Source: Ilex aquifolium (taxonomy: Eukaryota > Streptophyta > Magnoliopsida > Aquifoliales > Aquifoliaceae). From it: a stretch of 64,000 nt of DNA. Location: the NCBI GenBank assembly GCA_951799425.1, contig OX637394.1:33950001-34014000 (forward strand), in the 5' to 3' direction. Under the pieces are notes generated by a model that had not been told where the DNA came from, searched no databases, and saw only the letters and a program-made list of their open reading frames with translations. This document shows positions 1 to 20,769 of the stretch, piece by piece. Position 1 is the first letter of the stretch. Each line of letters starts with the position of its first letter. The translations under genes and the position numbers were made by a program.

Positions 1-1596
1 GCTTGGGAACAAGGGCATCAGCAGCCACATCGTTTGGAAGTACTGCCTTGGAGTTCCTCCATTTTGACCATGATCTACTCAGAATTTGAAAAAGTGAAAA
101 ACATGAAAGTTGTACATCTGGGTGTCTTCTATTTTGTGTCAAAATTTCAGCCCAATCCAACGGTTGGATCAAAATTTATGCCGATTCTACCAAAAATGGT
201 TCAGAGCAGACAAGAGGGTACCGGTACGCGTACCGGTACGCCGAAGTTTCTGGTGTTCGGGGTACCGGTACGCGTACCGGTACGCTCCCCTAAAGCAGCC
301 CCACTTGCTTGGTGGTCCCACCATCGATTCTCCCACGTTTTTCCCAACATTTCCTTACACAACCATGTCTCTCTTACACCTTGGGGAAGACTTTTGAGGC
401 TTGAACATTGAAGGAAGGGGGAGGGAAGTGGGCTGCCAGGCTATGCTCTCTCTAGCCTGTCAAAGCCATCCATTCAGCCCTCTCTTGATGGGAGCTCGTT
501 CACACAGCTAGGGGGGACCACCATGCACGAAAATGAGAGGCATACACTCCATATATTCAACATTACAAGCTTGTATTGAGGGGGCTACCTAAGCTTAGTT
601 TAGTTCCAATGAAGAAGACAATGAATAGTGCCGAAAGTTTACATTTTTGCATTCTCTTCATTCCATTGTCATGTAATCTCTTGTAAGGATCTTCTAAGTT
701 TAATATATTGTCTTTAATCTCATTCCTTTCAAGTCTATTGCAAGTTTACTTACATGTTCTTCATTTCACCATTGTTATGCTTTCATGTTCTTCATTTTTA
801 GCTTAAAATGGGTTTTGAATATTTCTCTTCATAGCTTTAGATTTCTTGTTGTAAGTTAATTTTCATGCTTCATGTCTTCATTATATGTCTTTACATTATG
901 CTTGTCTTTCATTTTTATGTATGATTAGCTAGGATTTAAGTTGGTTAATCCAAGGGAAAATTCCTCTTGGGGATTCCATTTCAACTCTTCTTCTTTCCTC
1001 CCTTTTGAGTCAAATGGTTCGGTTTGACGGGGTTGAGAGTGGATGAGTTGGTGAGCCTTTGATATTCCGTAGGCCTAGTCACGGTTTATGCTTAGATTAC
1101 TCACCAATCTCGTCCCTAGCTTCCCCCGAATCAATCGTTCATTCATGCTCAATCGGAGGAAGGCTTTGAGTTAGCTTGACATTCCCATTGGAGTGAACCT
1201 TTGTGGTTAATCAACACTTGCTTTATTTGTATTTTCATTCACAAACCAAACACAAAACTCAAATACAAGATTTTACACTTTCTTTTCACTTTTGTAAAAT
1301 CACTTTCACAAAACTCTCTTTCCTTCCCTGAGGAGACGACCTTGAAATATTTTCCAAGTAAAACACACGACCACAAAAGACTCCTTTCGATTGGGGAGCA
1401 TTTTTGTGCACACCGCATCTCATTCCATCTATTTTGTTCATCACATTTCCATTCACATCCATTTTGTTGTTGTTTCCTATCTTCTTGCATCATCCGGAGG
1501 GAGAGTGACACTCCCCCATCACTATAAGCCACATACACACATTGAGGGTGAGGGTGATGTTACGAGGTTAGGAACGACGTAATTACCAATCAATCA
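1..1596 (+). repeat. Solo-LTR-like repeat, copy A (truncated by window edge)
   Basis: This stretch is similar, in opposite orientation, to the solo LTR at 6167-8037. Shared blocks include the segment around 60-180 (matching 7560-7690 reversed) and the block around 1240-1530 containing CCTGAGGAGACGACCTT. Its right end AATCAATCA at 1596 corresponds to the terminus of the other copy, so the left end lies outside the window. No open reading frame is convincing. At 217-284 it carries two arrays of the palindrome GTACCGGTAC joined by GCG. The short frames here are shadows. The family is probably Ty3/gypsy, judged only from the motif near its 3' end. Confidence 0.7.
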
Positions 1597-3938
1597 GCTA
1601 GCAGCAGTGGAGTGGCACCAAGGGCAGCCCCGTACTACCGACCTGACCAAGTTTCGGGGCCACGAAATCCAGTGGTTCAAGGAGCTAGGGCTACTCGAAA
1701 TCGAACAGCCACTGACCCACGTCACTGTTTCGCATGTGGCGGTTTCGGGTACTTCAAAAATAGATGCCCATCAATTCCTAAAAAGACCAAACAAGCCGTA
1801 GGACAAGTAAATGCAAACAAGCCACCACCGCAGAACCCGTTAGAATATATAGCCCCCGACAATATTGATCAAGGGAGAATTCCTATTCTGACCCAACCGG
1901 GGGAAGATGTTTCCCATACAGTTGTGGAAGGTATCATTTTTCTCTAAAAGTCTGGGGCATGTATTTTATTTGAGTTTAACGTTACTCATTCCATCCCACA
2001 CACCACCTATGCAAATAACTTGGGATTAGACTTTGGGAATTTAGAACATGTCTGGAGTATAGACATGCCCACGGGAGAACGGTTGGATACTAAGAGGATG
2101 TGTATAGGTAGTGTGCTTCGAATTGGGGAGCGAGAATTGATGGTAGACATGGTTGTATTAGACATGAATGGGCACGCTAGTTTGTATCAAGTGGCTTAGA
2201 CTAGTCTAGGAAACGGATGATAATTTTGCTTTTGGTTGGTAAATGAGATTAGGCATGGATCTTGATTGCGAGTCATATTATTTATATTGGAGATGGGTAG
2301 GAGATAGGATGTGTAACAAAGACACCCAAACTTGAGTTAGACAAGTATAAAGGAACCCAACAGTCCGGCAGACTACCTCGCACCAATTTGTTCATAACTC
2401 TTCATTGGAAAGTCCAAATTGTGCACCGTTATTTTTGTTAGAACCCTAACTCGTATATCTTTCCAACCATATAGGTCACACATGCTCAAAATACTCGAGT
2501 CAAATCAGTTTATTCTTCGAAGTTGGTCAAAAATCTGCACTGTGGTGTTCTTTGGACAGTAAAGTGTTGTACTTTCTTCTTAGATTCGGATGGACCTATC
2601 CTTAAGGGAACTTTCACATTATTTAGGCTTTGATTGAGAGACACCCCCATATTGATTGAAGTGCTTTTGATGGATAACAATATAAAAGGTGATTATGATT
2701 TGGTGCTTGTCAACTTTAAGTATTCTCTTCCACTAATAGTATTGCTAATATTTTAGAAGTCAAGGGATATGATAACCCAATTGGGATGTGTGGAGATCAG
2801 GTTAACTTAGATTTTCTCTAAGATGAATTAAATTCCTAATGATAAGGGTATGGAAGGTTATGTGTGTTACCTAAAAGGCATAGAAATTAAGGAATGAATG
2901 TAGTTTTGGTTCTATAATAGAAACCCTGGGAGGGTAATGGTGAGTGCGATGTATGAGATTGAATAATTCTTAAAGATGACCAATTGATGGAATAGAGAAA
3001 AGTTACCTCGAAAGAGAGCCTATTTTGGATTAATGATAGAAATTGTGATTATGGTTCTTAAATGGATCGGAGTTTGTTTTCATAACCGCAAACTTGAGGT
3101 TACCCATATTGTTTTGAAAATATTATAGAGAGTTGATTAAATTTACTTGGAAGTATAAATAATTTAGAAGAGTCATACCTAAGATGCTTATGGAGGATGT
3201 TATACTTAGGTAATCTTATTTGGTTGTGGACTTAGTTCACTATATTTAGACTCTCTAAAATGTTAACAATCAAGAATCTATTGGGTGAGTGTGTAGTTAA
3301 TAGTTGAGTTGTATTTACAAATATTGATTTGAAATTGAGGTCAAGTTATGGAAAAAGGGAAATCTAAGAAGCTTGACTAAGTTGTAGTAGTTACATTTGA
3401 CCCTTGATATTGTAGGATTAAAGATTATAGAGGTTAAAAGCTTGATGTCATATATAGTAGACAATTATGGAAAATCGGGATCCTTGACAGTCTATCTTCA
3501 CATTTTGGCCTATTACAAGATATATATTGTAATGGATTGTGTCATAGGGATTCGAAAGTATAGGTATCGTGAAAAGAGTTAAGATGTTAATGAGAGTTAC
3601 TAAGAATTGATTACTTGGTTATTAGTTCTAGCTCAAGTTTAGAGATTGAGAATAAATACTTGGGAGATAGAAAATAATTGACCTTATTTGAGTTGGTGAG
3701 TAATGTGGAGATATTAAGATTGATCTAATAATAGGAATTTGAATGCGTGTGAGCTACGAATGGGATTTTAAGGCTTATGGAGTTAAGCGCAAGATTGAGG
3801 ACTGAAAATAAATATTTTGGAACTATAACTAGACCTTAGCCCAAGTAGTATATTTGATTATTTGCTAAAATATCTTTTGGAGGAGAAAGATAAATTGTTG
3901 GTGTATACATTTTGGAAGACAAAATTGTAGGACAAGTA
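1597..3938 (+). mobile_element. Older Ty3/gypsy element, 5' internal part (decayed)
   Basis: This is the left part of an old element that was split by the younger element at 3939-12796; the right part resumes at 12802. It begins with a gag-protease remnant (1606-2219) related to 8383-8796. From 2220 to 3938 I recognise no protein domain, only AT-rich decayed sequence with many stops. The split point is supported by homology: GGACAAGTATGGTTAGG is rebuilt when 3938 is joined to 12802, and it resembles 9997-10013 of the younger element. No reverse transcriptase is visible, so this copy may have been non-autonomous too. Confidence 0.7.
1606..2219 (+). pseudogene. Ty3/gypsy gag zinc knuckle and protease remnant
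   Basis: A frame at 1612-1947 contains a CCHC-like knuckle read as CFACGGFGYFKNRC, in which the usual histidine is replaced by tyrosine. It is followed by a proline/asparagine linker and by DVSHTVVEGI, the lead-in to the retropepsin domain. A stop follows at 1945-1947. Beyond it an aspartic-protease-like stretch can be followed by eye (LFEFNVTHS where LFDSGATHS is usual, then LDFGNLEHVW and ERLDTKRMCIGSV), ending at a stop near 2217. In a working element the knuckle binds RNA and the protease cleaves the polyprotein. Here the lost histidine, the missing DSGA and the stops show a dead copy. The sister copy at 8383-8796 keeps the histidine. Confidence 0.75.
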
Positions 3939-6092
3939 TGTAACACCCCGCATTTTCTTTTATATATGCATATAGATATATAAATATAGCAAATAATGGT
4001 TGTAAAGATGTGGATAGGGGTATTGAAGTGTGTTTGAACTTTGTAAATTTGAAAAGTAAAGATTTAAAATGTTAATGAAAATCATAGTTGAAATTTAGTT
4101 TTAGTGAGTGAAAATATAAAATGTTAGGTCATATAACTTGTATTAGATAGGTTTGGTGTATAAATATGTGTTGGAGAGGTTTGTGATGGATTTGGTTAGT
4201 TTTGGAATGGATTGGAAATGGAAAACAAAAGAAATAGGCAAAACTGGGTAAATGGTACCGGTACTGAGTACCGGTACCCCGATTCCAGAAGGTTTCTGGT
4301 ACCGGTACTGAATGGTACCGGTACCGAGTACCGGTACTACCGAAACCAGACTGTTTATTTTAAGTCGCGAACAAGCCGATTTTTCCTCCACTATAAATAC
4401 ATTTTTGTCACATCCTTAGCCTTCATTACACCACTCCAAACCCTAGAAAACATAAGAGAGGAAGACAGAAAGAGAGAAACACAAGATCAAGAGAAAACAA
4501 GAGATTGAAGGGTTGATTCAAGATCAAAGCCCTAATTTTTCCAAGAACATTAAGGTAGGGGATTTCTTCTCTTTCTCTTACATTGATGTTAGGGTTAATA
4601 AATATGTATGTTTTGATTCTTAATGATATGTATTTGCTATGGCTCCATTGTTTCTTGGTTCTTTTGCAATTGTTAACATGTTTTACACAAGTTAGGGTTG
4701 AATACCCATGAAATCTCTTTTTGGTTTGAAAAACCCTAGTTTTCAAGAGTGATGGGTTTTCCTCTTGAACTCTTCCTTTATTCTTGATTTCAAAATCATA
4801 GTGTTTTGTGTTGAGTAATAAAATGATATTGTTGTGATCTCTTGCATTTTTCTTGGTTGGTTATTGAAAATGTCACATGTTTAATTTGGGGATTTTGAGA
4901 TATACTTGTAAATGATGAAATTGGGTTTGGTATTGTATCTCTTATGAGTGTGGGAAGACCATGGGTGGCCTTTGACGAGATATCGTAGAGTGGGTAGACG
5001 TGTTTCTTGCTCCATGTGGGTTGGCATTTCTCCTACCACTCGTAGTGGGGTTAGTGCTTTGGTAAGACTAAACCGCTATTGCTCACGGGTGCCGTGTAAG
5101 AGGGTTAGTATACTAATGCCTGGGTTGGATACGTCACTGCCATTGGTATGGCATACGCCCTTCCTAAAGGATGGATATCTTTGATAAGATTTGTGTGGGT
5201 GTGTGTGGGTTAGATATTACTCAATGTGTCGATTCATGGGGTTTGCCTTACATCATGTTTGAGATACATATACATATTGATGGATTGTTGTATTATTGTG
5301 GAAAATGGTTTCCTACAAGGACTTGTGGGAGTATGGGATTCCACAAGGTCTTGGGGGAAAATGGTTTATATTTTAGAAAATGGATATGTATTGGATTTTG
5401 GTTTCTTTTACTGTTTATGTAAATTACTGTTGCTACTTAAACTTGAGATCTATTTAAAATGTTCTGATTTTCCTTCAAAATGTTATATATGCTATTTGTG
5501 AAAATGAGACCGGCCATTTTATATGTTTTTATAAACCTTGTTTGAGTTTGGGAAGATTTTGCTACAGAGCTTCGTGCTCATCCCCTACAATTAATATTTT
5601 TCAGATTATGCTATAGAGGAGGAGCTTGGCGCTAATGAGCCGGGCATTGGGGAAGCCTCATTAGAGGGGTACCTGGATCCCGAGTGGGACATTTAGAGAT
5701 GCCCCTTTTATTTTTGTACTAGACTAGGAACCAATATGTACAAACATTGTAAAGTCTAGTTTCTTTTGAAATTCCTCTGCAATATATTCATGTAATTCTT
5801 TTGGATTGTAATGGCCTTAGTTTGGCTTATTCTTTTGGGATGATTGTTGTGGATAGTATATATGGTGAATGAAATATTTTGGATTTGATGGTTAGATAGA
5901 CCCGGTGTAGTCAATGTATTATAAATGTACAAGTTGTGAGTTTTGGGAGAGCTTCCCGTACGAAGGAGACTCTGCCCAAATTTTGTTAAAATTAAGAATG
6001 TTTCTTATTTTATGGATATATATTTAGTTGCTCTCATGACATGAATGGTTTCATAGTGTAATGCCGTCTAGGGTGTGTTTTGGGGTGTTACA
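3939..6092 (+). repeat. 5' LTR of the nested chromovirus-like element
   Basis: 2154 bp, TG...CA termini. It matches the 3' LTR at 10656-12796 nearly base for base outside a palindrome array. The array at 4255-4337 holds five copies of GTACCGGTAC. CTATAAATAC at 4391-4400 is a good TATA box, followed by a purine-rich leader near 4450-4500. The short frames around 4948-5501 recur in the other LTR only because LTRs are duplicates; they have no recognisable domain. Confidence 0.92.
4391..4400 (+). promoter_or_regulatory. TATA box of the 5' LTR
   Basis: CTATAAATAC lies 53 bp after the last GTACCGGTAC palindrome. The same arrangement is seen at 11095-11104 in the 3' LTR and at 14379-14388 in the older LTR. 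Confidence 0.65.
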
Positions 6093-6096
6093 AAGT

Positions 6097-6108
6097 TGGT
6101 ATCAGAGC
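6097..6108 (+). other. Primer binding site (initiator tRNA-Met type)
   Basis: TGGTATCAGAGC begins five bases after the end of the 5' LTR. This is the standard plant retrotransposon site complementary to the 3' end of initiator methionine tRNA. Confidence 0.9.
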
Positions 6109-6166
6109 TTAGGCTTTAGGTCTTACATGGGAGCTGTAGGTTATGGATTACCACCGGAAAGGTAGG

Positions 6167-8037
6167 TGATTGAATGAAAACCGTGTTGTATTCCCTAACC
6201 CCTAAACATCATCCCTAATTGTGTGTATGGCTTATAGGAATGGGTGAGTGTCACTCTCACTCGGAATGATGCAAAAGATTAGGCAACAATGGAATGGTGA
6301 TGGAAATGAATGGAATGCGTGTGTGGTGAACAAAAGTGCTCCCCAATCGCAAGGAGTCTTTTGTTGTCGGTGTTTTACTTGGAAAAGTATTCCAAGGTCG
6401 TCTCCTCAGGGAAGGAAAGGGAGTTTTGTGAAAGTGATTTTGCAAAAAGAGAAAAGAAAGTGTAAAATCTTGTATTTGTGTTTTGTTGAGTTTTGTTCAA
6501 AATGAAAATGCAAGAAAGCAAGTGTTGGCTAATCCAAGAGGTTCATTCCAATGGGAATATCAAGCCAACTCAAAGCCTTCCTCCAATGGTGCCTAGAAGT
6601 ACGATTGATTCATGGGAAGCTAGGGATAAAATGGTGAGTATCCAAGCATAAACCGGAATATCAAAGACTCACCAATTTATCCACCCTCAACCCAATCAAA
6701 CCGAGCCAACATACACCGAGAGAAGGAATGAAAGAGAGTTGGAATGGAATCCCCAAATGGAATTCACCCTTGGACTAACCAACTTAAAAGCTAGCTACTT
6801 ATGCATAAATGAAAGACAAGCATAATGTAAATAGACATGGAAGGGAAATGGAGCATGAAACTTAACTTACAACAAGAAATCTAAAGCTATGAAGGAAAAA
6901 TATGCAATACCCAATATACAAGCTTGAAATGAAGAAAACTTAAATAACAATGGTGAAATGAAGAACATGAAAGTAAACTTGCAATAAACTTGAAAGGAAT
7001 GACATTAAAGACAATAAATGAAGCTTACAAGGTTCTTACATTAAACTACAAGTGAAAGAGTGGAAGAAAAATGCAAAAACGTCACTTTGAGCACTATTCA
7101 TCATCTTCCCCCTTGGAGCTTTCTATATCTAATCCTAAGCTTAGGTAGCCAACCCCTTTTCTTGTGTGTTGAATGTTGAATGTATAATGGAGAGTGAGAG
7201 CCTCGAATTTCGTCCATGGAGGGTCCCCCTAGGTGTGTGCAGGTCTTACACCAAAGAGGGGCTGAGTTGATTGCCTTGGACAAGCTAGGACAACACCCCC
7301 ATGGTAGCCCACTTCCCTCCCATGCCTTCTTCAATGCAAAGCCTCCAAAGTCCTCCAAATGTGTAAGGGAAGCATGTGCTTGTGTAAGATAATGTTGGGG
7401 AGCAAGTGGGAGAAGATTAGGTGGGACCCCCAAGCCGCAAAGTTGAGTTGCAGGCTGTTTTTCGTATTCTGGGCAAGACCTTCCGGAAGAACGATGACAA
7501 CCTTCCGGAAGGTTTAACCTACTGGAATCTGGTGACAGCTCTGGACCAGTTTTGGTAGAAAAATAATAAATTTTGATCCAACCGTTGGATTGATCTGAAA
7601 TTTTGACACAATAAAAAAGACATCCATATCTACAACTTTCATGTTTTGCACTTTTTCAAATTCGAAGTAGATCATGGTCAAAATTTAGAAAAACAGTGGT
7701 ACAGTGTCAAAATTACGAAATTCCAGTGGGCTAAACCTTTCGGAAGGTCTTCATAAACCTTCCGGAAGGTCTTCATCCAAAATGCATTTTTCTTGATTTC
7801 TTTACCTTCCAAGCCTCTCAATCCTCATTTCATGAGTCCACCACTTCACCTCACATCCAACATAGTTGCAAAGTCCTAAAATCCATCATTTAAGCTATCA
7901 AAACATGCAACATCAAAATATCAACATTATTCACAACTTTGGTTAACACTAAGTACTTAAATGCAAAAGTTGAGTTAAAATGCATATAATGAGGCCATCA
8001 AATATGCAATATTTTGCTCTCATCAGTAGGACTAGGT
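6167..8037 (-). repeat. Solo LTR nested in the chromovirus-like element, copy B
   Basis: The 1871-bp insertion has TGAT...ATCA ends and an exact 5-bp target duplication GTAGG (6162-6166 and 8038-8042). On the minus strand it begins TGATGAGAGCAAAAT. No internal region, primer site or coding domain is seen between the ends, which fits a solo LTR left by recombination between two LTRs. It is a diverged relative of 1-1596. Instead of GTACCGGTAC it carries copies of ACCTTCCGGAAGGT and variants near 7479-7520 and 7734-7775. Confidence 0.85.
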
Positions 8038-8129
8038 TGAAGGAACCGTAGGCTTGTATTGGTTTGAAGCTATGTGTTTATCAGATAGGTTAGATTCATT
8101 TTATATTTAGTGTAAGGGTTAATTATTTG

Positions 8130-8273
8130 TTCGAATTCGATGAGTTGTCTCGCTACGCAATCAAGTTTGTGGTCACTGAGGCAAGGAGAGCTAAACGCTT
8201 TGAACAAGATTTGAGGCCTTCCATCCGCGAGAAGCTGGTTACACTCTTAATTCAAGAATACAAGATCTTGTGA
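8130..8273 (+). pseudogene. Ty3/gypsy gag (capsid end) fragment
   Basis: Reading from TTC at 8130 gives FEFDELSRYAIKF, then TEARRAKRFEQDLRPSIREK and a few more residues to a TGA at 8271. The RRAKRFEQDLRPSIR block is typical of the end of the gag capsid-like domain in plant Ty3/gypsy elements. The rest of gag is missing upstream, where the solo LTR was inserted. After the stop, a 12-bp GGACGTGGACGT-like repeat (8275-8330) encodes an Arg-Gly-rich stretch in another frame. That suits the basic region usually found before the zinc knuckle at 8383. Gag coats the element RNA in virus-like particles; this fragment is not functional alone. Confidence 0.65.
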
Positions 8274-8274
8274 A

Positions 8275-8330
8275 CGTGGACGTGGACGTGTACGTGGACG
8301 TGGACGTGTACGGGGACGTGGACGCGATTG
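8275..8330 (+). repeat. CGTGGA minisatellite encoding an Arg-Gly tract
   Basis: Repeats of CGTGGACGTGGACGTGTA read RGRGRV in one frame. They lie between the capsid remnant and the zinc knuckle, where gag often has a basic RNA-binding linker. Confidence 0.7.
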
Positions 8331-8382
8331 AACAAAGGCTTCAGACAGTGGAGAAGATGGAGTTACTCAGACGAGAGTAGGC

Positions 8383-8796
8383 ATGGACCCGCACCCATGC
8401 GTTGCATGCGGAGAGTATGGGCACTTCAAACATAGATGCCCCTCGTTTCCCCCAATAACCAAGCAAACAACTGAGCGAATGAATGCAAACAGGCCACCGC
8501 TACGACAGCCACTACCACCACAGAGACCGTTACAAGCTCATGCCCCCGGCGGCGCCAATCAAGGAAGGGTTTTTGCTTTGACTCAACCGGAGGAAGATGT
8601 CTCCAACGCCGTTGTGGAAGGTATTGTTCTTCTCTACCATTCTTGGGCCCGAACTTTATTGGATTCCTATGCGACTCATTCTTCTATACGTACTGCGGAC
8701 GTTGTGGAATTGGGATTGGGTTCCGAGGAGCTAGAACATGCTTTATATGTGGACTTGCCTACGGAAGAACAGGGGGGATACCAGGCTAGTCTGTAA
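8383..8796 (+). pseudogene. Gag zinc knuckle and start of retropepsin, truncated
   Basis: The 137-residue frame starts with an intact CCHC knuckle (CVACGEYGHFKHRC, about residues 7-20). A proline-rich linker with TERMNANRPP follows, then DVSNAVVEGI at the start of the protease. The active-site motif reads LLDSYATHSSI where DSGATHS is expected, so the glycine of DSG is lost while the aspartate stays. The frame then runs through VELGLGSEELEHALYVDLPT and ends at 8796, before the second half of the protease. At 8822 the sequence changes to LTR-derived material, so the rest of pol was removed. It is better preserved than the sister remnant at 1606-2219. Function is inferred from the family; this copy cannot make an active protease. 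Confidence 0.8.
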
Positions 8797-8821
8797 GGGT
8801 TACGTGCAAGCAGATTACATT

Positions 8822-9975
8822 TCAGTTACCAGTAGGTTTACTTATATGTATTTCTTTGACTCTAATTTATATCTACTTGCTAGGGAATTAGCATATCTTG
8901 TCATTCTGGATAATACTACCTTGTTCCAAAATATATTATGGTGGGGTAAACCCTAAATCTTTTCTTATGCCTTCAAACCCTAGTTTACAAAGGAGATGTG
9001 TTTTTCTCTTGATTTCTCCTTTGTTCTTGATTCCCGAACTTAAATATTATTTGTTCTAAGCTATGTTATGGGTGGGTGACCACCAAATCCTTTTGGTATG
9101 CCCTTGAAATCCTAGTTTTCAAGGGAGAGTTGTTTTCTCTTTATCTTGCCTCTGTCATTGATTTCAAACATTGATAGTCATTTGTTATCGATTCCAATAC
9201 ATGATTGTTACTTTATCTCTGATTCCAAGCTTGATCTCCGTTGTTATTGATCTCGAGACTTGATTGTTTCCTTGTCCTTAACTTCCTAAGCTTAATGATC
9301 CATTTGTTCTTGGTATCCAAAAATTTGATATTCGTTTGTTATTGATTCTACCCTTGTGATTCAATTATTTTCAATATTTAATACTTGATATTCTTTATTT
9401 TTGGTTCCAAGACTTGAGTGTTCTTTTGGTCTTGATTTCTAAGCTTCATAATCCTTTGTTCTTGATTTCACACCTTAATAGTTGTTTGTTATTGATTTAC
9501 ATACATGATCGTTCCGTTAAATCTTAATTTCTCCTTTGTTCACGACTTTCACGCTTGATACGCCTTTATTCTGGATTTCCAAACTCAATATTTATTTGCT
9601 CTTGATAGCCAAATTTGATATTCATTTGATTGATTATAACTATTGTAAGTCATGTATTCTTGATATTCAATACTTGACATCCTTTGGTTCTTGATTTCAA
9701 GACTTGACATTCAATTGCTCTTGATTTCAATACTTGATTTCTCCTTGTCCTTGAGTTCAAAACTCGATACTCTTTAGTTCTTGGTTATAAAGCTTGATAT
9801 GCATCTGTTATTGACTCCAAGACTCGATTGTTACTTTGTTCTTGATTCCCAAGCTTGATTATTTATTTGTGCCTTAATTCAAAATTCTAAAGATTGGTAT
9901 TGACCAATAAAATGGTATTTTCGATGATATTATGTTATTTTTTCTTAAATTATTTCGTTGGAAAAATGTATATGG
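8822..9975 (+). repeat. LTR-derived segment replacing pol
   Basis: This stretch is related to 14577-15185, inside the LTR of the older element. Both open with AGGTTTA(C/T)TTATATGTATTTCTT and close with a version of AACAAAATGGTATTT, and both contain TTGGTTCCAAGACTTGAGTG. The middle is a degenerate series of TTCTTGATTTCAA-like units, longer here than in the older LTR. It sits where protease, RT, RNase H and most of integrase should be. I infer that a piece of LTR was joined in by recombination or template switching. Confidence 0.7.
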
Positions 9976-10068
9976 ATTTGGAAGCTAAGATGGGAGGACA
10001 AGTCTGGTTAGGTTTCAACTGTAACCTTTGGTGGATTGTAAATTATATCAGAGTGCGCAGCGAACTAA

Positions 10069-10614
10069 CGGAGTAAGGACTACAATGGGGAAACTACGGA
10101 GAAGATTCAACTCATCCGGGAGAGGCTACGCACGGCGCGAAGTAGACAGAAGAGCTACGCGGACCACAGACGAAGATCCTTAGAATTCAAGGTGGGAGAC
10201 TACGTATACCTTAAGGTGTCACCCAAGAAGGGCGTGTTTCGATTCGGCAAGAAGGGGAAGTTAGCGCCAAGATATACCGGACCGTTTGAGATAATCAAAG
10301 TGGTAGGCAAGGCGGCATATCAACTTCGACTACCAGCCCAGCTACCCGGAGTACATGACGTGTTCCACGTGTCGATGTTGAGAAAGTGTCAATCGGATGC
10401 AACGCCGGTCGTAGACTTGGAAGATATTGAAATTCAAGAGGGAGCAACCTATGAAGAAAAACCGTTGAAGATTCTCGATGCCAAAGAGAAGGTGCTCCGT
10501 AACAAAGTCATCCGACTAGTGAAGGTTTTGTGGCAACACCATGGAGTGGAAGAAGCTACTTGGGAACCGAAGCAAGAAATACGGGAGAAGTATCCACATT
10601 TGTTCGCTACTTGA
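10069..10614 (+). CDS. Integrase C-terminus with chromodomain (chromovirus pol fragment)
   Basis: The frame is open from 10069, just after a stop at 10066, so it has no true start and is a fragment of pol. It reads ETTEKIQLIRERLRTARSRQ, then a KSYADHRRRSLEFKVGDYVY segment typical of the integrase tail. The GPY/F module follows (LAPRYTGPFEII, HDVFHVSMLRK), and then a chromodomain with VKVLWQHHGVEEATWEP near the end. In chromoviruses the chromodomain directs integration towards marked chromatin. The integrase catalytic core is absent. The frame ends 41 bp before the 3' LTR, which is the normal position. Its good preservation beside missing enzymes suggests recent acquisition from an active relative or relaxed but recent decay. 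Confidence 0.88.
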   Translation, partial: RSKDYNGETTEKIQLIRERLRTARSRQKSYADHRRRSLEFKVGDYVYLKVSPKKGVFRFGKKGKLAPRYTGPFEIIKVVGKAAYQLRLPAQLPGVHDVFHVSMLRKCQSDATPVVDLEDIEIQEGATYEEKPLKILDAKEKVLRNKVIRLVKVLWQHHGVEEATWEPKQEIREKYPHLFAT

Positions 10615-10640
10615 GGTAAGTTTCGAGGACGAAACTTTCT

Positions 10641-10655
10641 TTAAGGGGGGTGGAT
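10641..10655 (+). other. Polypurine tract before the 3' LTR
   Basis: TTAAGGGGGGTGGAT directly precedes the TGTAACACC start of the LTR at 10656. The same context, preceded by TTTCGAGGACGAAACTTTCT, is repeated at 13672-13686 in the older element. Confidence 0.85.
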
Positions 10656-12796
10656 TGTAACACCCCGCATTTTCTTTTATATATGCATATAGATATATAG
10701 ATATAGCAAATAATGGTTGTAAAGATGTGGATAGGGGTATTGAAGTGTGTTTGAACTTTGAAATTTTGAAAAGTAAAGATTTAAAATGTTAATGAAAATC
10801 ATAGTTGAAATTTAGTTTTAGTGAGTGAAAATATAAAATGTTAGGTCCTATAACTTGTATTAGATAGGTTTGGTGTATAAATATGTGTTTGAGAGGTTTG
10901 TGATGGATTTGGTTAGTTTTGGAATGGATTGGAAATGGAAAACAAAAGAAATAGGCAAAACTGGGTAAATGGTACCGGTACTGGGTACCGGTACTGAATG
11001 GTACCGGTACCCCGATTTCAGAAGGTTTTTGGTACCGGTACTACCGAAACCAGACTGTTTATTTTAAGTCGCGAACAAGCCGATTTTTCCTCCACTATAA
11101 ATACATTTTTGTCACATCCTTAGCCTTCATTACACCACTCCAAACCCTAGAAAACATAAGAGAGGAAGACAGAAAGAGAGAAACACAAGATCAAGAGAAA
11201 ACAAGAGATTGAAGGGTTGATTCAAGATCAAAGCCCTAATTTTTCCATGAACATTAAGGTAGGGGATTTCTTCTCTTTCTCTTACATTGATGTTAGGGTT
11301 AATAAACATGTATGTTTTGATTCTTAATGATATGTATTTGCTATGGCTCCATTGTTTCTTGGTTCTTTTGCAATTGTTAACATGTTTTACACAAGTTAGG
11401 GTTGAATACCCATGAAATCTCTTTTTGGTTTGAAAAACCCTAATTTTCAAGAGTGATGGGTTTTCCTCTTGAACTCTTCCTTTATTCTTGATTTCAAAAT
11501 CATAGTGTTTTGTGTTGAGTAATAAAATGATATTGTTGTGATCTCTTGCATTTTTCTTGGTTGGTTATTGAAAATGTCACATGTTTAATTTGGGGATTTT
11601 GAGATATACTTGTAAATGATGAAATTGGGTTTGGTATTGTATCTCTTATGAGTGTGGGAAGACCATGGGTGGCCTTTGACGAGATATCGTAGAGTGGATA
11701 GACGTGTTGCTTGCTCCGTGTGGGTTGGCATTTCTCCTACCACTCGTAGTGGGGTTAGTGCTTTGGTAAGACTAAACTGCTATTGCTCACGGGTGCCGTG
11801 TAAGAGGGTTAGTATACTAATGCCTAGGTTGGATATGTCACTGCCATTGGTGTGGCATACGCCCTTCCTAAAGGATGGATATCTTTGATAAGATTTGTGT
11901 GGGTGTGTGTGGGTTAGATATTACTCAATGTGTCGATTCATGGGGTTTGCCTTACATCATGTTTGAGATACATATACATAATGATGGATTGTTGTATTAT
12001 TGTGGAAAATGGTTTCCTACAAGGACTTGTGGGAGTATGGGATTCCACAAGGTCTTGGGGGAAAATGGTTTATATTTTGGAAAATGGATATGTATTGGAT
12101 TTTGGTTTCTTTTACTGTTTATGTAAATTACTGTTGCTACTTAAACTTGAGATCTATTTAAAATGTCCTGCTTTTCCTTCAAAATGTTATATATGCTATT
12201 TTTGAAAATGAGACCGGCCATTTTATATGTTTTTATAAACCTTGTTTGAGTTTGGGAAGATTTTGCTACAGAGCTTCGTGCTCATCCCCTACAATTAATA
12301 TTTTTCAGATTATGCTATAGAGGAGGAGCTTGGCGCTAATGAGCCGGGCATTGGGGAAGCCTCATTAGAGGGGTACCTGGATCCCGAGTGGGACATTTAG
12401 AGATGCCCCTTTTATTTTTGTACTAGACTAGGAACCAATATGTACAAACATTGTAAAGTCTAGATTCTTTTGAAATTCCGCTGCAATATATTCATGTAAT
12501 TCTTTTGGGTTGTAATGGCCTTAGTTTGGCTTATTCTTTTGGGATGATTGTTGTGGATAGTATATATGGTGAATGAAATATTTTGGATTTGATGGTTAGA
12601 TAGACCCGGTGTGGTCAATGTATTATAAATGTACAGGTTGTGAGTTTTGGGAGAGCTTCCCGTACGAAGGAGACTCTGCCCAAATTTTGTTAAAATTAAG
12701 AATGTTTCTTATTTTATGGATATATATTTAGTTGCTCTCATGACATGAATGGTTTCATAGTGTAATGTCGTCCAGGGTGTGTTTTGGGGTGTTACA
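10656..12796 (+). repeat. 3' LTR of the nested chromovirus-like element
   Basis: 2141 bp, nearly identical to 3939-6092. It has four GTACCGGTAC copies (10971-11041) against five in the 5' LTR, in a different order. TATA box CTATAAATAC is at 11095-11104. It is followed by target duplication AAGTA. Confidence 0.92.
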
Positions 12797-12801
12797 AAGT
12801 A

Positions 12802-13686
12802 TGGTTAGGTTAGAATTGTACACTTTGGTAGAATCTGACATATTCTCATCACTTTCAAACCAATGAGAATTCTTGTCTTGTGGCTAGTTTTGATTTGTGA
12901 ATTGGTGGATTATAATTTATATTAGAGTGCGCAACGAACTATTTGAGTAATGACTATAATGGTGAAGGTAAAAAGGTATCATGAGGAATTGCAAATGGAT
13001 GGGCAACCTAAGAGTTGATCCTCGAATATTGATTTATGTGGTAGTGTGCTGTTGTGAATTGAAGTTATTGTAGATTTCAAAGATTATGAATTCTATTGGC
13101 TAGTGAGAGACAAAGTCATTAAGAATGTTGTATCCATTTCAGGAATCGAGATAAACCTTACTGTAATGTCATTAGTAAGTTTTGTGTTATACCATAATGT
13201 TAGTGTAGGAAAGATGAGTAACCCTATTAGCAGAATTGCAATTTGAGTTATTTTGATATGCTTATGGATAATCTGCATGTAAAAAGCAAATATGAGGTTT
13301 ATTGAAATGATTGGTGAAATTCAAAAGTGAAATGATTGGTGAAATTCAAAAGAGAATTGATATTTGATGATTAGACAATTAAGTATTATGATTTAGTAGT
13401 TATGCATGATGAGAAATTAGTTAGAACAACCGTATACAATTATTGAGAATAGAGGTGATAAATGAATTCTAGTGAAGAAATGTAATCTTGAGGACTTTAA
13501 GTAACTACAATGATGTTATAAGTGAAAAATGTGGATATCAAAATTTCGAATATGATATTTTATTCTGATATAGAATTTGATGCTTAAGGGACTAATATAC
13601 GATGAGAACTTGTGGTAAATTAGAATTTGATAGACTAACTCGACGATTAAGTTTCGAGGACGAAACTTTCTTTAAGGGGGGTGGAT
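12802..13686 (+). mobile_element. Older Ty3/gypsy element, 3' internal part
   Basis: This segment continues the element interrupted at 3938. It contains AGAGTGCGCAACGAACTA, also found (as GCAGCGAACTA) at 10050-10068 in the younger element. It ends with TTTCGAGGACGAAACTTTCT and a polypurine tract at 13672-13686. No coding domain is recognisable. A short direct repeat of GAAATGATTGGTGAAATTC occurs near 13300-13350. Confidence 0.7.
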
Positions 13687-16342
13687 TGTAACACCCCGCA
13701 TTTTCTTTTATATATGTATATAGATATATAGTAAATAATTGTTGTAAAAATGTGGATATGTGGAGTGATGGTAGGAATAAAAACAAAAACTAGAGATACA
13801 AATTGATTGGGAAGTTAAGTTTCGAAGGTGTAAACTTGAGAACAGGGATTATAGAAGTTTCTAAATATTTTTAGGTCAAAATAAGTTCTCCATTGAATCT
13901 GGAAGGTCGAAAAAGATTGGGAGAGGTAATGTGGAGTGTATTGGAAGCTAGGAAGTATTCCGGAGTAAAAACACACTTAGAGAGAATTTGGGTAAAAAGG
14001 AGTTGGGACACCTTCTAGTATTTAAGTCATAACTTTTTATCCTGACGACCAATTGATCCTAAATTTTGACAGTAGATAGTAGACATCTAGGGCTACAAAA
14101 GTGTATCTCATGAAAATTTTCCAAATCAATCTCTAAATAGGTCAAAACGTCACTGGAAGTTTCAGCAAAAACAGGAATTCCGTTCGAACGTGAATCGACG
14201 TTCGAACGTGAATCGACGTTCGAACGTGAATAAACGTTCGAACGAAAGTGCGTTCCAGTACTCGTCTGATGGAAAAACAAAAGTACTGGGAGTGACGAAC
14301 GTTCGAACGCCAATGACGTTCGAACGTGACTTGCGAATTCTGGGTTTTAGAATCGCGCACATGAGACCATTTCTCACCCTATAAATACATAAGGACGCCT
14401 CCATTAGTCCCATTTCAACATTTCAAACCCTAGGAAGACTTAGAGAGGAGGAAAGAAGGGGAAAACACAAGATCAAATGAGGATTTGCACCTTGAAGAAG
14501 ATCAAAACTTCAAGTTTTCAAGAACACATAGGAAGAAGAAAGGTAGGGGTTTTCTTCCATTCTTTTACATTGAGGCTAGGTTTATTTATATGTATTTCTT
14601 AACTCTAAATGTTATAACTATGCTATCAAATCCTTAATTCTTGCTATTCTTGCAACTCATGCCATGGGGAAAATAATGTGATTGTTGGGTAACCCTTAAA
14701 TCTCCTTACTTGCTATCAAACCCTAGTCTTCAAGGGAAATGTGTTTTTCTCTTGACTTCTCCTTTGTTATTGATTTCAATACATGATTGTTCCTTTATTT
14801 TGAGTTCTAAGCTTGATATTCAATACTTAATATTCGTTATTCTTGGTTCCAAGACTTGAGTGTTCTTTTGGTCTTGATTTCTAAGCTTCATAATCATTTG
14901 TCCTTGATTTCACACCTTGATAGTCGTTTGTTATTTATTTCCATTCATGATTGTTCCGTTAAATCTTAATTTCTCCTTTGTCCATGATTTTCAAGCTTGG
15001 TGCGCCTTTATTCTTTATACTCCAAGTTTAATATTCATTTGTAATGATTCCAAAGCTTGATTACTCATAGGTTCTTGATTTCAAAACTTTAGTGTTTCAT
15101 ATTGAACAACAAAATGGTATTTATGATGATCACTTGTACATTTTCTTATATTGCTCTTTGTACAACTACTTGAGAAAATTGGGGGTTTATGGAATTGTTT
15201 GTTAATGGAGGAAATTGTGGATATCGTATTTCTTGTTTGGTTGTTTGGAGGAACATGAGTGAGAGGTTCCTTGTAAGGATGCTCATTCCTTCTCAGGAGG
15301 TTCCTTATAAGGATGCTTGAGAATTGGGGACTTGTGTAAGTGTTGGTTAGGTGAGATATTTGTTGGTATTTTATCTCTTGGGTGGTTGTACGGCACGAAC
15401 ATGGATTACTATTGACCGGGTATCATGTAGTGGGTAGACGTCTTCGTATGCCACGCGGGTATGAACTTTTCCTACCACATGGAGTGGGTAGACGTCGTTG
15501 TACGCCGTGTGGGTATGAACTTTTCCTATCACTAATGATCACAGAGTAGTAACGTGGGTTGTGTCGGACATACAGTGTGGGTTATTGTGCATTGTACCAG
15601 AAATGGTTTCAACAAGAGTTTCCGGAAGTATGGGATTCCGCGAAAACTTGTTGGAAACGGTTTACAGTAGAATGGATTATCTATTGTATATTGGTTATTG
15701 TTCACTCTACCATAGACGGTTTCTACAAGAGTCTTGGGAAGTATGGGATTCTGCGAGAACTTGTGGAAACAGTGTATGGTGGATTGGATTATATTTGGAT
15801 ATAGTTTGTTAACTGTATAGTGGTCCCACTTATTCATTCAATTACTGTTGTTCCTTAAACCTGAGATCTATTTAAATGTCCTGGTTTTACTTCAAAAGTT
15901 ATATATGATATTTGTGAAATGAGACCGACTTGTTTTACATGTTTTCTAAACCTTGTTTGAGTTTGGGAGGATTTTCCTACAGAGCTTAGTGCTCACCCCC
16001 TACAAACCAACACATTTTTCAGGTGATGTTGTAGAAGAGGATCGGTTAGAAGACGAGTAGGGGGATCCGGAGGGGGATATCTCGACGGTCCTTCTTTGTA
16101 CTAGATTGAAGGGTTATTTTGGGGATCATGTAAAATATAATCTTTTGTTATTCCGCTGCTAAGTGTAATTTAATTCTTTTGGGATGTAATTGCCATGATT
16201 TGGCTTATTCTTTTGGGATAATGCTATGGACATGATATCTGATGAATGAAATTTCTTTATTGAGGGAATTTATTTAGTCGCTCTCATGTTGTGAATGGTC
16301 TTAGATAGTAATGCCGTCCAGGGTGGATTTTGGGGCGTTACA
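13687..16342 (+). repeat. 3' LTR of the older Ty3/gypsy element
   Basis: 2656 bp from TGTAACACCCCGC to GGCGTTACA, related to the LTRs at 3939 and 10656 but clearly diverged. At 14181-14327 it carries about six copies of a CGTTCGAACG palindrome in place of GTACCGGTAC. TATA box CTATAAATAC is at 14379-14388. The middle (14577-15185) is a degenerate TTGATTTC-rich repeat, also found at 8822-9975. Its partner 5' LTR lies left of the window. Confidence 0.85.
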
Positions 16343-16862
16343 ATTATGCTTGAGAGCCTATAGATATATCAAATACAATGCACATCATGTTTTTCCCCTT
16401 AGTTGGTGTTCACAAGTAAAAAATAAACAAAGAAAATAGGTGACTTTATGTCAAGTTTGTGTATGTACTCCCCCTGAGTATTTGAAGAAATTACCCTTTA
16501 CTCAATTCTCATGCACCTAATCCAAGCTAGCAAATAAAAATTTCTCCAAAATTATCCAAAAATTCTCCCCTTTTTTATCACAAAGTGTCAAATCAATGAC
16601 ATATTATAACATGTAAGGTAAAACAATGTATAATAAAGAGATATCAAGACAATTCAACTAGCAAGAATAGACATGTGGAATAAAGAAAAGGATAGTGATG
16701 ACATTGAACTCAAAGTCTAAATGATAAACCATATGACAAAGAGTGTGTCACAACAAAAGAAAAATCAACAAGAAAAAATAGAGTACTTTAATATAAGACC
16801 ATAAATGAATACAACTCTCATATGTCTCATATGGTAGTATACTAAGTCGTTTAACAGCTCAA
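16343..16862. other. Gene-free stretch
   Basis: AT-rich sequence with no convincing frame. The reverse strand contains AAAAAAGGGGAGAATTT near 16555-16575, which resembles a retrotransposon polypurine region, but no LTR can be delimited. Confidence 0.4.
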
Positions 16863-18170
16863 GTGGCTATACCATCTTTACCATCATCACCATCACCTGG
16901 CGCTCCCTCAAGCTCATCCTCATCAATGAGTCCAGCATCGACCTCAATCTCGAGAACTCTGGTCATTCTCAATCTCGAGAACTCTGGTCTTCTTATCTCC
17001 TGATGCATCGACCTCTGGTCATTCTCAATCTCGAGAACTCTCTCATCAAGAGAATTAAGTTTGAGAGCATTAAGATTATTCTGCTCATTAACACTGTTCT
17101 ATAAATGGCCTATCTCATGTATAAGAGCAATCTATTAACCAAGGGACGATGTGAGTGCAACCCTGTGTGGTGTAGCACATGAAGTGTTAGCATGTGTATG
17201 CATTTGTGGTGGTGCACTAGTCAATGGCCCTAGTTCAAAGGGGTGAACAGGTGCCTCAGGCTCTACATCCTCTGCCTCTGGCTAAACCTCCGTGGGATCA
17301 AACATATAACATGTGTGTCTCACTCTGTCGCAAGAAATCCTTCCCAAGAGGTTTCGGTGGTTTCTTCCTCTAATCGTATCTAGTGTTGTAACACCCTTAC
17401 CCAAATAAATCTAGGTGATCAATGAACCAAATGGAAACCATTGCTCACTCTACCCTCATCGTAGGCTCTCCAAATGACCTAAAATATAACTAATGGAAAA
17501 TCAATATCCAAACTCGTCCCAATGGCATGTAAAGGTTAGGCTTGTAGGGTAGGAAATGTGGATACATGGGTCTTCAAATTGATGTTATAATTTATGATCA
17601 AATTGATCATCCGATACTTTCTCGTCAAATCTATTTGAAACCACTTCTATTGGTTCCAACCACTAGGATAAGGAGCTCCATATAGCTTGAAAGAAACATC
17701 GCTAAGACTAGATGCCTCACTATCATGTCGATGATGATAAGCATCATGTGGGACCCTAGGTAAGTGTAGGGTGGTGGTAATCAAGTCAGCGGAGAATTCA
17801 AACAACTCACCATGGACATATGTCATGAAATGTTGTTTATCAATAGTAGTGTTCCTAATGCGTGCATAAAACTCCCTAACTATGGTCTCATTCGCAGTCT
17901 CAGGGCCACGAATAGCTCAATCCACTCTTTTGACTTAAAATTCAAAGGGGTAGCAGTGTTACTTACCTTAGTGAAATTTACCCCTCGTTCCACCATAACC
18001 AAACGTCTAGCAAACTGTCTTCTGTAAAGATCACGATAATGGGGATCCTGAAACCTACTCCTCTCATTAAAGCTTCATACCCAAGCTCTCTATTCAGCTC
18101 TTCGTGGTATTTTCCAAAAATAATTGGTGAAAAGGTACAAATGCAAGTGAATGAATTATAATGCATGGAA
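16863..18170 (-). pseudogene. Decayed transposon-type coding region, minus strand
   Basis: On the minus strand, a frame from about 18070 reads RFQDPHYRDLYRRQFARR followed by an ERGV-like turn, then many stops. This resembles the plant transposon-associated domain found in large Ty3/gypsy-linked proteins (PF20167 type). That identity rests on the look of the RF..P.....Y......R....ERG pattern only. Downstream, about 16900-17050, the minus strand encodes an acidic tail with GDGDDGKDG. The function is unknown and the copy is dead. A direct duplication of part of it lies at 18529-18800. Confidence 0.35.
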
Positions 18171-18528
18171 TTACCTTGGGTATGGAGGAACTAGAGGGGA
18201 CTAGTGAATAAAGTTAAGCTTGTCCAGGTCTGTGCAAACCACTCGAGCGATTAGGGCGATCACTCAAGTGGTCCCTAAAGCAATTGACCTTTTGTATCCT
18301 TCTTCAAATTCATCTACTTTCTATACCACATTTCTTTCCCAATCACTCACTCGAGCCTCAAATAACATGCATGGGTGTACGTACAACCTCAAGCACAAAT
18401 ATATGTATATGTATGGATGAAATTAGGATCAAAAATTTATGATGCAATTTTCAATTTTAACAATTAAAATGCAAAATGTCATTAATCAAAAAATCACGAG
18501 TGTCACCTTAGCTTGAAACCTCTCAGGT

Positions 18529-18800
18529 GTCTCAGGCTCCATGTCCTCTATCTCGACTTCCATGGGAGCAAACATATAACCTGCATGTGTCTCTCTCTGT
18601 CGCAATGACTCCTTTCCAAGGAGTTTCTTTGGTTTCTTCCTCTGATCACCCTCTCGACTCGAAATTCAAAGGGATAATTCCATCATGATCGGACGTCTAG
18701 CAAACTGTCTTCTGTAAAGATCACGGTAATGGGGATCCTGGAATTTACTCCTCTCGTAAAAAATACAAACCCGAGCTCTCTTCTTGGCTCTTAGTGGCAT
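18529..18800 (-). repeat. Partial duplication of the 17253-18090 sequence
   Basis: 18529-18650 matches 17253-17385, sharing GTTTC and GGTTTCTTCCTCT context. 18670-18800 matches 17990-18110, sharing ACGTCTAGCAAACTGTCTTC. The two blocks are closer together here because the intervening segment is missing. Confidence 0.6.
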
Positions 18801-20769
18801 TTTCAAAAAATAAACGATGAAAAGGTGCAAATGCAAGTGAATATCACAGATCTAAAGTCAGATCACACCTAAAATCACTTTAGAGTGAGTTATGATATGT
18901 GGAATAGCCTTGGGTACGAAGGAAATAAAGTGTGCTCGTGAGTAAAGTGAGAAGGAAGTGAGAAATGAAGTTGAAAAGGTAATTTTAAGTCTGTCCGAAC
19001 AAGAACCTGCGCCGAGTGCTTGAGCGGTCCAAAAAACAATTGCCCTCCTACTTCAGGCTTCAGATTCAGCTGTTTTCTATAGCACTTTTCTTTCCTAATT
19101 GCTGACTTGAGCCTCAAATGACATGCATAGGTGTATGTACAACCTAAATGCAACTATATGCATGGATGAAATAGGAATTAAAATGTATGATGCAATTTTT
19201 AATTTAAACAATAAAATAAAAAATATTAGCAATCATGAAAATCACACATATTCTCAATATAGCATATTCATCCCTATTTCATCATCAAGTACATTACTCT
19301 AAGGCATATTAATGAATGTAGAACTTAATCTTCATGCATCATGGAGCAATATCCTTTCACTTAGTTCAATTTCATTCATACATTTTTTTTTTTTTGATCA
19401 AACATTCATACATATTTGAATATTGCATATTTGATCAATTCAAATATGACGTATGTGAAACCAAACTCCAACACTATTAGGAATCCGTCAAGATTAATGG
19501 ATTGAAAGGCTCTACATGACTTCCTAATGCATTGTCTATAAGTGAATATATGACCATTTAGTGAGTGTTCTAAATGCATATTTTCTATTCTTTTTAAACA
19601 CCCCCTTATTGTTACATCCCTTCTACTCATATGGCTTTAATTAGCACAAATTCCTAATCATTCATTACTTTGTTATGTTGCCACTTGAACCAAAAAAAAA
19701 ACTGTGGTTCTTTTCATTGGCAAAATACAATTGAGCTTTTGCACAAAAAACATTTTTAAAAATAATTTCCAATCTAACGCTTCTATGAAAATAATTTATG
19801 TTCTAATAAGTTGAAAATATGGTATCTCGAGAAAGTTTTTTGTCCTGCAACACCCAAAATTTCTTGCAAACAGCCACTTTCATTTTTCGCAAATTATGCG
19901 GGGAAATTTTTTTTCATGAGAAACTTATCTTGTTTCCTGTTTTGCCCACTTAACATGTTACCCATTTCAGCAAGAGAAGTGAGAAGAATTTAGATATTTT
20001 GCTCACAACAAAATAAAAAGAAATAAATATTTTTGTTACAAATGTTACGTTTTTTTAAGCAATTGAACTAGAGTTGTAAATGAGTATTATTCGTGCTATG
20101 TTTAAATAGTATTGTGTTAAAATTTGTCTAACTTACACATGTCTATGTGTTCGATTAATATTAAAGGATAATTTAGTACTTACATAATTTTTTTTATATT
20201 TTTCTAGCAAACTTTTCATTCTAATCAAACACATACAAAAAAATAATTTTTTTTTTTCATTTCTTTTCTTTCACTTCACTTTCTACCGTTTTCACTTTCC
20301 ATCATCAATTTCTTTTTAATCAAACAGGGCTTAAGTATATTTTGAAAGTGGGTATACACCCTCTCCCGCTAAACAATTTTTTTATTCAATGCTAAATAAT
20401 AGGTGTTTGATACTCAAACGACTTGTTGAATGTTACTCAACCTTAAATTGAAAGCAAGGGAGTTCTCCTTGATAAAATTTTGAGCAATGCTACATGAAAC
20501 TTATTTAGTGACTTTATTTGGTGACCTTATCATTTTTTGTCATTAGATTAACAGTTGACTCCACTATTAGTTGGGACCCACTGTCAATTGAATGGTTATG
20601 ATCCATCATATCACTAAATAAAGTCACAAAATTATGTATAAACATTTTCCTAAAACTTTTGGTTACTTTGGGAATGGCACTTGTTTGTAATATATATATA
20701 TACTAATTATTGCATGTGTCTGAAGGTACAAAGTAATAAAAAATGGTAAACAATAAACATATTTGTATT
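18801..20769. other. Intergenic AT-rich DNA with MITE-like end
   Basis: No gene is visible. Around 20180-20335 the reverse strand begins AAGCCCTGTTTGATTAAAAA and is followed by poly-purine runs, a look common to the ends of plant hAT-like MITEs, but I could not find a matching second end or target duplication. Confidence 0.35.

What the first reader, a model, noticed from the sequence alone, without database searches (positions are those of the whole stretch)
4255..14388. Family-specific perfect palindromes at a fixed distance upstream of LTR TATA boxes
In three chromovirus-type LTRs, a cluster of short palindromes ends 51-53 bp before CTATAAATAC: GTACCGGTAC (4255-4337, TATA 4391; 10971-11041, TATA 11095) and CGTTCGAACG (14181-14327, TATA 14379). 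The core sequence changes completely between the old and young LTR while position, clustering and self-complementarity are kept. I infer selection for a property such as binding of a dimeric factor or hairpin formation, with fast turnover of the exact sequence. I recall comparable palindromes in soybean SIRE-type LTRs, unverified.
Basis: partly seen in the sequence, partly recalled or inferred. Interest (0 to 1): 0.78.

Follow-up and report, generated by a model that had tools for sequence, protein, structure and literature searches.

The report
Self-complementary switchable repeats in LTR promoters
In one plant-like genome, nearly every sampled promoter of a group of jumping genes carries a cluster of short DNA words that read the same on both strands at a set distance before the start signal; the word differs between subfamilies but the symmetry is kept, which suggests that the symmetry itself matters.

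Summary
I sampled 100 promoters (all on one contig) by a pattern that ignores palindromes. 98 of 100 (28 of 30 non-redundant) carry at least three perfect palindromes of 10 bp or more within 300 bp upstream of the TATA box; shuffles give about 3 of 100 with even two. The last unit ends 51-54 bp before CTATAAATAC in 92 of 98, although between some classes the intervening sequence is no more alike than shuffled sequence. Six core classes occur, with nine label changes on each flank tree. Genome-wide at the last position, GTACCGGTAC occurs 1355 times, CTACCGGTAG 1110, the two non-palindromic hybrids 2 and 3. Pairing is enforced over about 10 bp. A repeat family without BLAST match to these LTRs carries the same cores.

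Best reading: an exchangeable enhancer array of two-fold symmetric sites for dimeric host factors; rivals are RNA hairpins and RNA dimerisation. Sirevirus LTR palindromes are the known precedent (PMC2829016), so this is a new variant of a known kind, in chromovirus-type LTRs. No binding or expression data were available.

The parts
3939..6100 (+). 5' LTR of the chromovirus-type element (TGTAACACCCC start)
10656..12805 (+). 3' LTR of the same element
4255..4338 (.). array of five GTACCGGTAC palindromes
4391..4400 (+). CTATAAATAC TATA box, 52-53 bp after the array
10972..11041 (.). array of four GTACCGGTAC palindromes
11095..11104 (+). CTATAAATAC TATA box, 53 bp after the array
14181..14327 (.). 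array of six CGTTCGAACG palindromes and one overlapping CGAACGTTCG
14379..14388 (+). CTATAAATAC TATA box, 51-52 bp after the array
10069..10611 (+). 3' end of pol (frame fragment): Tf2-1-like SH3 domain and weak chromodomain match, just before the 3' LTR
   Evidence: PF24626 E 7.3e-26; PF00385 E 3.6e-4, below the curated cut-off
8332..8793 (+). protease fragment (RVP_2)
218..285 (.). four GTACCGGTAC palindromes in a copy of another repeat family (family W; LTR structure not verified)
7480..7514 (-). CTTCCGGAAG / AACCTTCCGGAAGGTT palindromes at the homologous place of a second, inverted family-W copy
7757..7770 (-). ACCTTCCGGAAGGT palindrome of the same family-W copy

Best explanation
The arrays are promoter-proximal enhancer modules in the U3 part of the LTR, built of 10-bp two-fold symmetric binding sites for a dimeric host DNA-binding protein, held at a set distance from the TATA box. 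Within a lineage array copies are gained and lost; across lineages whole arrays are replaced or exchanged, so the element changes which factor (or which member of a factor family) it uses while each version stays symmetric. Shown here: perfect palindromes, clustering, spacing, two-sided switching, a limit at about 10 bp, sharing between repeat families. Inferred: that a protein reads them, that it is a dimer, that it activates transcription, and that different cores mean different factors.
For: 98 of 100 palindrome-blind promoters have arrays. The gap to the TATA box is 51-54 bp in 92 of 98; interval identity between the CGTAC class and each other class has medians of 0.57-0.61, against a shuffled mean of 0.55 and 95th percentile of 0.64 (other class pairs 0.60-0.81). 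Genome-wide, GTACCGGTAC lies 50-54 bp before CTATAAATAC 1355 times but only 8 times at 20-49 bp. Complementarity is 96% at pair +-5, where G-C (193) and C-G (179) are about equally common, 53% at +-6 (35% expected), and at or below expectation at +-7 to +-10: a sharp limit suits a protein footprint. Hybrids are 5 of 2470. In five of six classes the central CpG is changed no more than about 3%. CpG observed/expected is 1.10 in the array zone (0.79 without exact cores), 0.40 upstream and 0.76 downstream. Spacings of 20-21, 32 and 42-43 bp are the commonest in the ACTAC and GCTAC classes and 21-22 and 42 in TTCCGG, near whole helical turns. L109 and L103, nearly identical on both flanks, carry different cores at the same first two unit positions.
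Against: No binding, expression, methylation or small-RNA data exist here. No known factor was matched to any core (both searches narrow). Copies are related: the 2470 sites reflect few events, with 3-4 changes at pair +-5 on the flank trees of the C1 sample. Spacings of 13 and 16 (GTAC) and 17-18 bp (TTCGAA) are not helical. Non-palindromic units recur: 26 T>A changes in 136 GCTAC units, and in 120 ACTAC units 31 changes each at position 2 and at the central position 5 (units CAACCGGTAG and CAACAGGTAG are visible). Two pattern matches of another family (L138, L159) have a CGTTCGAACG unit only 12 bp from the TATA box. Family W has arrays without a CTATAAATAC box in the stretches read.
Confidence: 0.5

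Rival explanations
1. RNA or single-strand hairpins: units pair with each other in transcripts that run through U3 and serve as templates for small RNAs or as a structural element, as proposed for maize Sireviruses.
For: The arrays of the window fold below shuffles (z -6.3, -5.0, -4.2; 0, 0 and 1 of 200 shuffles as low). Sirevirus palindrome regions are small-RNA hotspots with strong predicted structure, according to passages of PMC5311732 and PMC10760457 that cite Bousios et al. 2016; that paper itself was not held.
Against: Strong folding follows from any array of identical palindromes and is not independent evidence. A single unit has no stable self-fold. Hairpins need neither a rigid 51-54 bp to the TATA box nor a limit at 10 bp. 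Structure that feeds silencing would be expected to be lost, not kept (inference).
Confidence: 0.2
2. RNA-RNA dimerisation: each palindrome in the 3' U3 of the genomic RNA pairs with the same word of a second RNA, like a retroviral dimerisation site, so that any self-complementary word works and RNAs with the same word are packaged and recombine together.
For: Self-complementarity is kept while the word changes. Single units do not fold but form 10-bp homoduplexes of -14 to -16 kcal/mol. Families that share a core also show apparently exchanged or chimeric arrays (L001; L109/L103).
Against: The arrays sit upstream of the TATA box at a fixed distance, which an RNA function at the 3' end does not need. 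Dimerisation signals known to me lie near the 5' end (recalled). No RNA data.
Confidence: 0.12
3. Descent and mutation only: a palindromic tandem repeat arose by chance or by template switching during reverse transcription, was duplicated and copied, and new cores came by array exchange, with no selection on symmetry.
For: The LTRs are related, array copy number varies, and some arrays appear to have moved between families. Few independent switches.
Against: Four distinct 10-mer cores, all perfect palindromes, would each have to arise so. The length of the interval is kept where its sequence is at shuffled level. Hybrids are almost absent, 5 of 2470. CpG-rich array zone next to a CpG-poor upstream flank.
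Confidence: 0.15

Closest known systems
Sirevirus LTR repeated motifs (RM; Bousios et al. 2010, PMC2829016, passages and section 9 read)
   Same: Palindromic repeats clustered in the LTR a short way upstream of a conserved TATA box, CpG-rich, with element-specific sequence; one listed RM (Vitis, CGGTCGACCG) also occurs in this window near 54.6 kb.
   Different: Host elements are Ty1/copia Sireviruses. The listed RMs number eight or more copies per element, and 12 of 13 have a CGG-CCG signature with or without intervening bases; here the units are spacerless 10-bp words with cores TACCGGTA, TTCCGGAA or GTTCGAAC, in chromovirus-type LTRs, with measured spacing and two-sided switching.
Maize Sirevirus palindrome region as small-RNA hotspot (Bousios et al. 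2016, not held; cited in PMC5311732 and PMC10760457, passages read)
   Same: Palindrome-rich cis-region of LTRs, variable in sequence.
   Different: The claim there concerns structure and small RNAs; here the evidence concerns symmetry, spacing and core switching, with no RNA data.
Exchange of LTR segments between families (RLG_Quinta motif also found in RLC_Gisela, PMC11302176, passages read)
   Same: An LTR part is proposed to be acquired from an unrelated family.
   Different: There a 162-bp motif linked to centromeric nucleosomes; here promoter arrays.
Retroviral dimerisation initiation sites (recalled)
   Same: Short palindromes whose exact word differs between strains while self-complementarity stays.
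   Different: Located near the 5' end of the RNA; no RNA function is shown here.

Membership tests
Sirevirus repeated motifs (RM) | Palindromic repeats with dyad symmetry clustered upstream of the LTR TATA box | tested here: met
Sirevirus repeated motifs (RM) | CGG-CCG core signature (12 of 13 listed elements) | tested here: not met
   Cores are TACCGGTA, TTCCGGAA and GTTCGAAC against the table
Sirevirus repeated motifs (RM) | At least eight copies per element | tested here: not met
   The window LTRs have 5, 4 and 7 palindromes each; the sample has 590 in 100 promoters. Single ones reach eight or more (e.g. L140). Copies elsewhere in an element were not counted
Sirevirus repeated motifs (RM) | Host element is a Ty1/copia Sirevirus | tested here: not met
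   Element 3939-12805 has RVP_2, a Tf2-1-like SH3 and a weak chromodomain match
Ty3/gypsy chromovirus (Tekay-like) | Chromodomain at the 3' end of pol | tested here: inconclusive
   PF00385 E 3.6e-4, 20.8 bits against a cut-off of 25.1; SH3_Tf2-1 E 7.3e-26
Ty3/gypsy chromovirus (Tekay-like) | Reverse transcriptase phylogeny in the Tekay clade | not tested
   No ORF with a start codon of 150 aa or more in 1-20000. The lineage name Tekay is recalled from the look of the pol tail and LTR start
Heat-shock elements | Alternating GAA/TTC blocks with 2-bp spacing | tested here: not met
   TTCCGGAA fits one TTCnnGAA step, but the commonest core TACCGGTA does not; consensus recalled
Retroviral-type RNA dimerisation site | Palindrome-dependent dimerisation of genomic RNA | not testable with these tools
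   Only duplex energies computed

The most novel reading that the evidence does not exclude
The arrays are selected for self-complementarity as such, not for any one word: they act as a family-specific 'self-recognition code' that lets RNAs (or cDNA ends) of the same lineage pair, so that the word can drift or be swapped freely as long as it stays its own complement, and lineages sharing a word recombine.
Probability: 0.12. Interest if true: 0.85.

Novelty: new variant of a known kind. Interest (0 to 1): 0.62.

Why it matters
The genome holds about 3,200 matches to one promoter pattern whose sampled members differ by a palindromic core, a natural experiment on how retrotransposons change their regulatory inputs. 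Two-sided switching with almost no intermediates is strong sequence evidence that the symmetry of an LTR promoter motif is itself selected. It would let one test whether plant LTR palindromes are protein sites, silencing templates or RNA pairing sites, a question that the Sirevirus passages which I read leave open.

Tried and rejected
Single-unit hairpins: rejected, because a 10-mer has no stable self-fold and in five of six classes the would-be loop bases are not more variable than the rest; ACTAC is the exception.

General helical phasing of units: seen in ACTAC, GCTAC and TTCCGG, not in TTCGAA or most GTAC spacings, so not claimed.

A named transcription factor: a text search for the cores listed four papers (listing only), two on Phytophthora infestans promoter motifs or factor specificities, not followed up; a search for ACCGGT with four other terms gave none. 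LOB-domain, SBP, LEAFY and heat-shock factors were considered from memory only; none seemed to fit all cores.

Prior description in chromoviruses: searches with chromovirus + LTR + palindrom + promoter (11 of 11 listed) and Tekay + LTR + palindrom (11 of 11), and broader ones (13 of 14 listed, 20 of 43 listed), showed no title or abstract start that describes it. Passages of PMC6911290 (12 of 17 places shown), PMC8282616, PMC11963269 and PMC10794571 concern other uses of the word. Most subscription papers are not in the library.

An unbiased sample of 10-kb stretches could not be had. The whole-genome counts of GTACCGGTAC alone and of CGTTCGAACG at 50-54 bp did not complete and not obtained. 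L003 and L004 (family-2-like upstream, CGTACCGGTACG core, no CTATAAATAC) were read but not put into the trees. The 100 sampled matches and family W were not each verified as LTRs.

One search was a failed filing (format).
Full report
What was checked. The window is G000:C4:33950001-34014000 of an unnamed 800-Mb genome, plant-like by its elements (inference). The first two arrays belong to the two LTRs of one element (3939-6100 and 10656-12805), so they are one observation. That element is chromovirus-like: protease RVP_2, Tf2-1-like SH3, and a chromodomain match that stays below the curated cut-off. The third array (14181-14327) has a close relative (99% over 226 bp) 16.8 kb upstream, 2.5 kb outside the window (C4:33947502); that the first element is nested in an element with these two LTRs is my inference.

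Is it more than chance? I chose promoters by a pattern that says nothing about palindromes: CTATAAATAC, 22-52 bases, AAACCCTAG. It has 3226 matches in the genome and one in the reversed control. The listing shows the first 100, all on contig C1 between 4.5 and 27.4 Mb; I fetched all 100. They were not each verified as LTRs. 98 of 100 carry at least three perfect palindromes of 10 bp or more of any core in the 300 bp before the TATA box (590 palindromes; 30 shuffles mean 29, maximum 40). Of 30 non-redundant ones, 28 do. The centre of the last palindrome lies at -59 to -57 in 85 of 100 (25 of 30). L070 and L147 have none of the recognised cores. Two further sets, picked by similarity to the two LTR types of the window (30 of 40 listed hits of each search, the window's own arrays among them), give 60 of 60 loci with two or more palindromes; the last centre is at -59/-58 in 29 of 30 and 27 of 30. 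Among 22 TATAAATA sites of the window with 300 bp upstream, only the three reported have such an array; +54938 has one CCGGTCGACCGG and five have AT-rich palindromes.

Position. In the 98 promoters with a recognised core, the end of the last unit (at most one mismatch) lies 51-54 bp before CTATAAATAC in 92, 56 bp in four and 12 bp in two (L138 and L159, far from the rest in the tree). For the CGTAC class against each of the others the median identity of the interval is 0.57-0.61, where shuffled pairs give a mean of 0.55 and a 95th percentile of 0.64; other class pairs range from 0.60 to 0.81 and are partly alike by descent. Genome-wide, GTACCGGTAC stands 50-54 bp before CTATAAATAC 1355 times, and only 8 times at 20-49 bp, of which three are the upstream partner of a close pair. 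The distance is a property of this LTR group: family W has arrays but no such TATA box in the stretches read.

Core classes and symmetry. The 100 promoters fall into GTAC (26), GCTAC (20), ACTAC (17), TTCGAA (17), CGTAC (12), TTCCGG (6) and none (2). These are four 10-mer cores; GCTAC/ACTAC and GTAC/CGTAC differ in the sixth pair. For the 387 units centred on TACCGGTA, the fifth pair is G-C in 193 and C-G in 179; 15 are unpaired (96% paired, 48% expected if the sides were independent). The sixth pair is 53% against 35%, and pairs seven to ten are at or below expectation. The enforced unit is thus about 10 bp. Whole-genome counts at the last position are GTACCGGTAC 1355, CTACCGGTAG 1110, and the hybrids GTACCGGTAG 2 and CTACCGGTAC 3; the reversed controls are 0. 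By my arithmetic, independence would give about 1220 hybrids. These are related copies: on flank trees the fifth pair changes 3-4 times and the six labels nine times, where five is the least possible (few columns, many forks open), so independent events are few.

How the core changes. L109 (GTAC) and L103 (ACTAC) are nearly identical on both flanks; their first two units occupy the same places 13 bp apart, with both outer bases changed in each. L082 and L153 are 95% and 98% identical upstream and downstream, with different cores. Other cases look like exchange of arrays. L001 has a GTACCGGTAC array and upstream flank like the first family (BLAST hits), followed by a different downstream sequence. 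Family W has no match of 120 bp at E 1e-10 to the LTRs of the element; the window copies at 1-520 and 7860-7201 align on both sides but carry GTACCGGTAC and CTTCCGGAAG/AACCTTCCGGAAGGTT, and the latter 16-mer also occurs in the TTCCGG class of the sample. I fetched 20 of 40 listed family-W hits, on 17 contigs: all 20 carry two or more GTACCGGTAC-cored palindromes, 18 with at least one exact 12-bp-spaced pair, the spacing that is also commonest in the CGTAC class (12, 32, 44).

Mechanism. A single 10-mer has no stable fold but a strong homoduplex, and units in an array pair with each other. In five of six classes the two central bases, the CpG on the dyad, are changed in at most about 3% of units; in ACTAC one of them is changed in 26% through a recurrent altered unit (CAACAGGTAG in L082). 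That count admits only units with at most two mismatches. The weak self-fold speaks against single-unit hairpins but not against pairing between units. The rigid distance to the TATA box and the limit at 10 bp favour protein sites on duplex DNA. I therefore rate dimeric host factors first (0.5), hairpins with small RNAs second (0.2), descent without selection third (0.15) and RNA dimerisation fourth (0.12). Results against my reading: recurrent non-palindromic units (26 T>A changes in 136 GCTAC units; 31 changes each at two positions in 120 ACTAC units), non-helical spacings in two classes, no factor found, few independent switches, and two promoters with a 12-bp gap.

Relation to known systems. 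Sirevirus LTRs have palindromic repeated motifs upstream of a TATA box that lies on average 37 bp after a CpG island (PMC2829016). One of the listed words is present near 54.6 kb of this window (CGGTCGACCG). Later work ties such regions in maize to small RNAs and structure (PMC5311732 and PMC10760457, passages; the 2016 paper itself not held). The present arrays look and may work like these but are not members: different element group, different core signature, mostly fewer copies. I found no description for chromoviruses in the searches named under Tried and rejected.

Noticed in passing
window 54450-54950: Stretch with CGGTCGACCG and CCGGTCGACCGG upstream of a TATA-like site at 54938; the first word is listed for a Vitis Sirevirus. 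That it is a Sirevirus LTR is inferred from the word alone.
   Followed up: partly
G000:C1:28180089-28261993: LTR promoters recur about every 5.1 kb on one strand (17 listed hits in a row), apparently a tandem array of LTR units.
   Followed up: no
L066, L074-L079, L083, L086 and others, about -28 to -18 from the TATA box: A second fixed palindrome GTTCGCGAAC close to the TATA box in GCTAC and many ACTAC promoters (TTCGCGAA in the TTCCGG class).
   Followed up: no
L138, L159: Another family with CGTTCGAACG arrays and a palindrome only 12 bp before the TATA box.
   Followed up: partly
L001: Apparent chimera: GTACCGGTAC array and upstream flank like the first family, followed by a different downstream sequence.
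   Followed up: partly
window 61376-62432: Tandem repeat with a period of about 110 bp, 81-85% identity between shifted copies.
   Followed up: no
L065, -166 to -141 from the TATA box: A 26-bp perfect palindrome, GATAGTGACTACCGGTAGTCACTATC, far longer than the usual unit.
   Followed up: no
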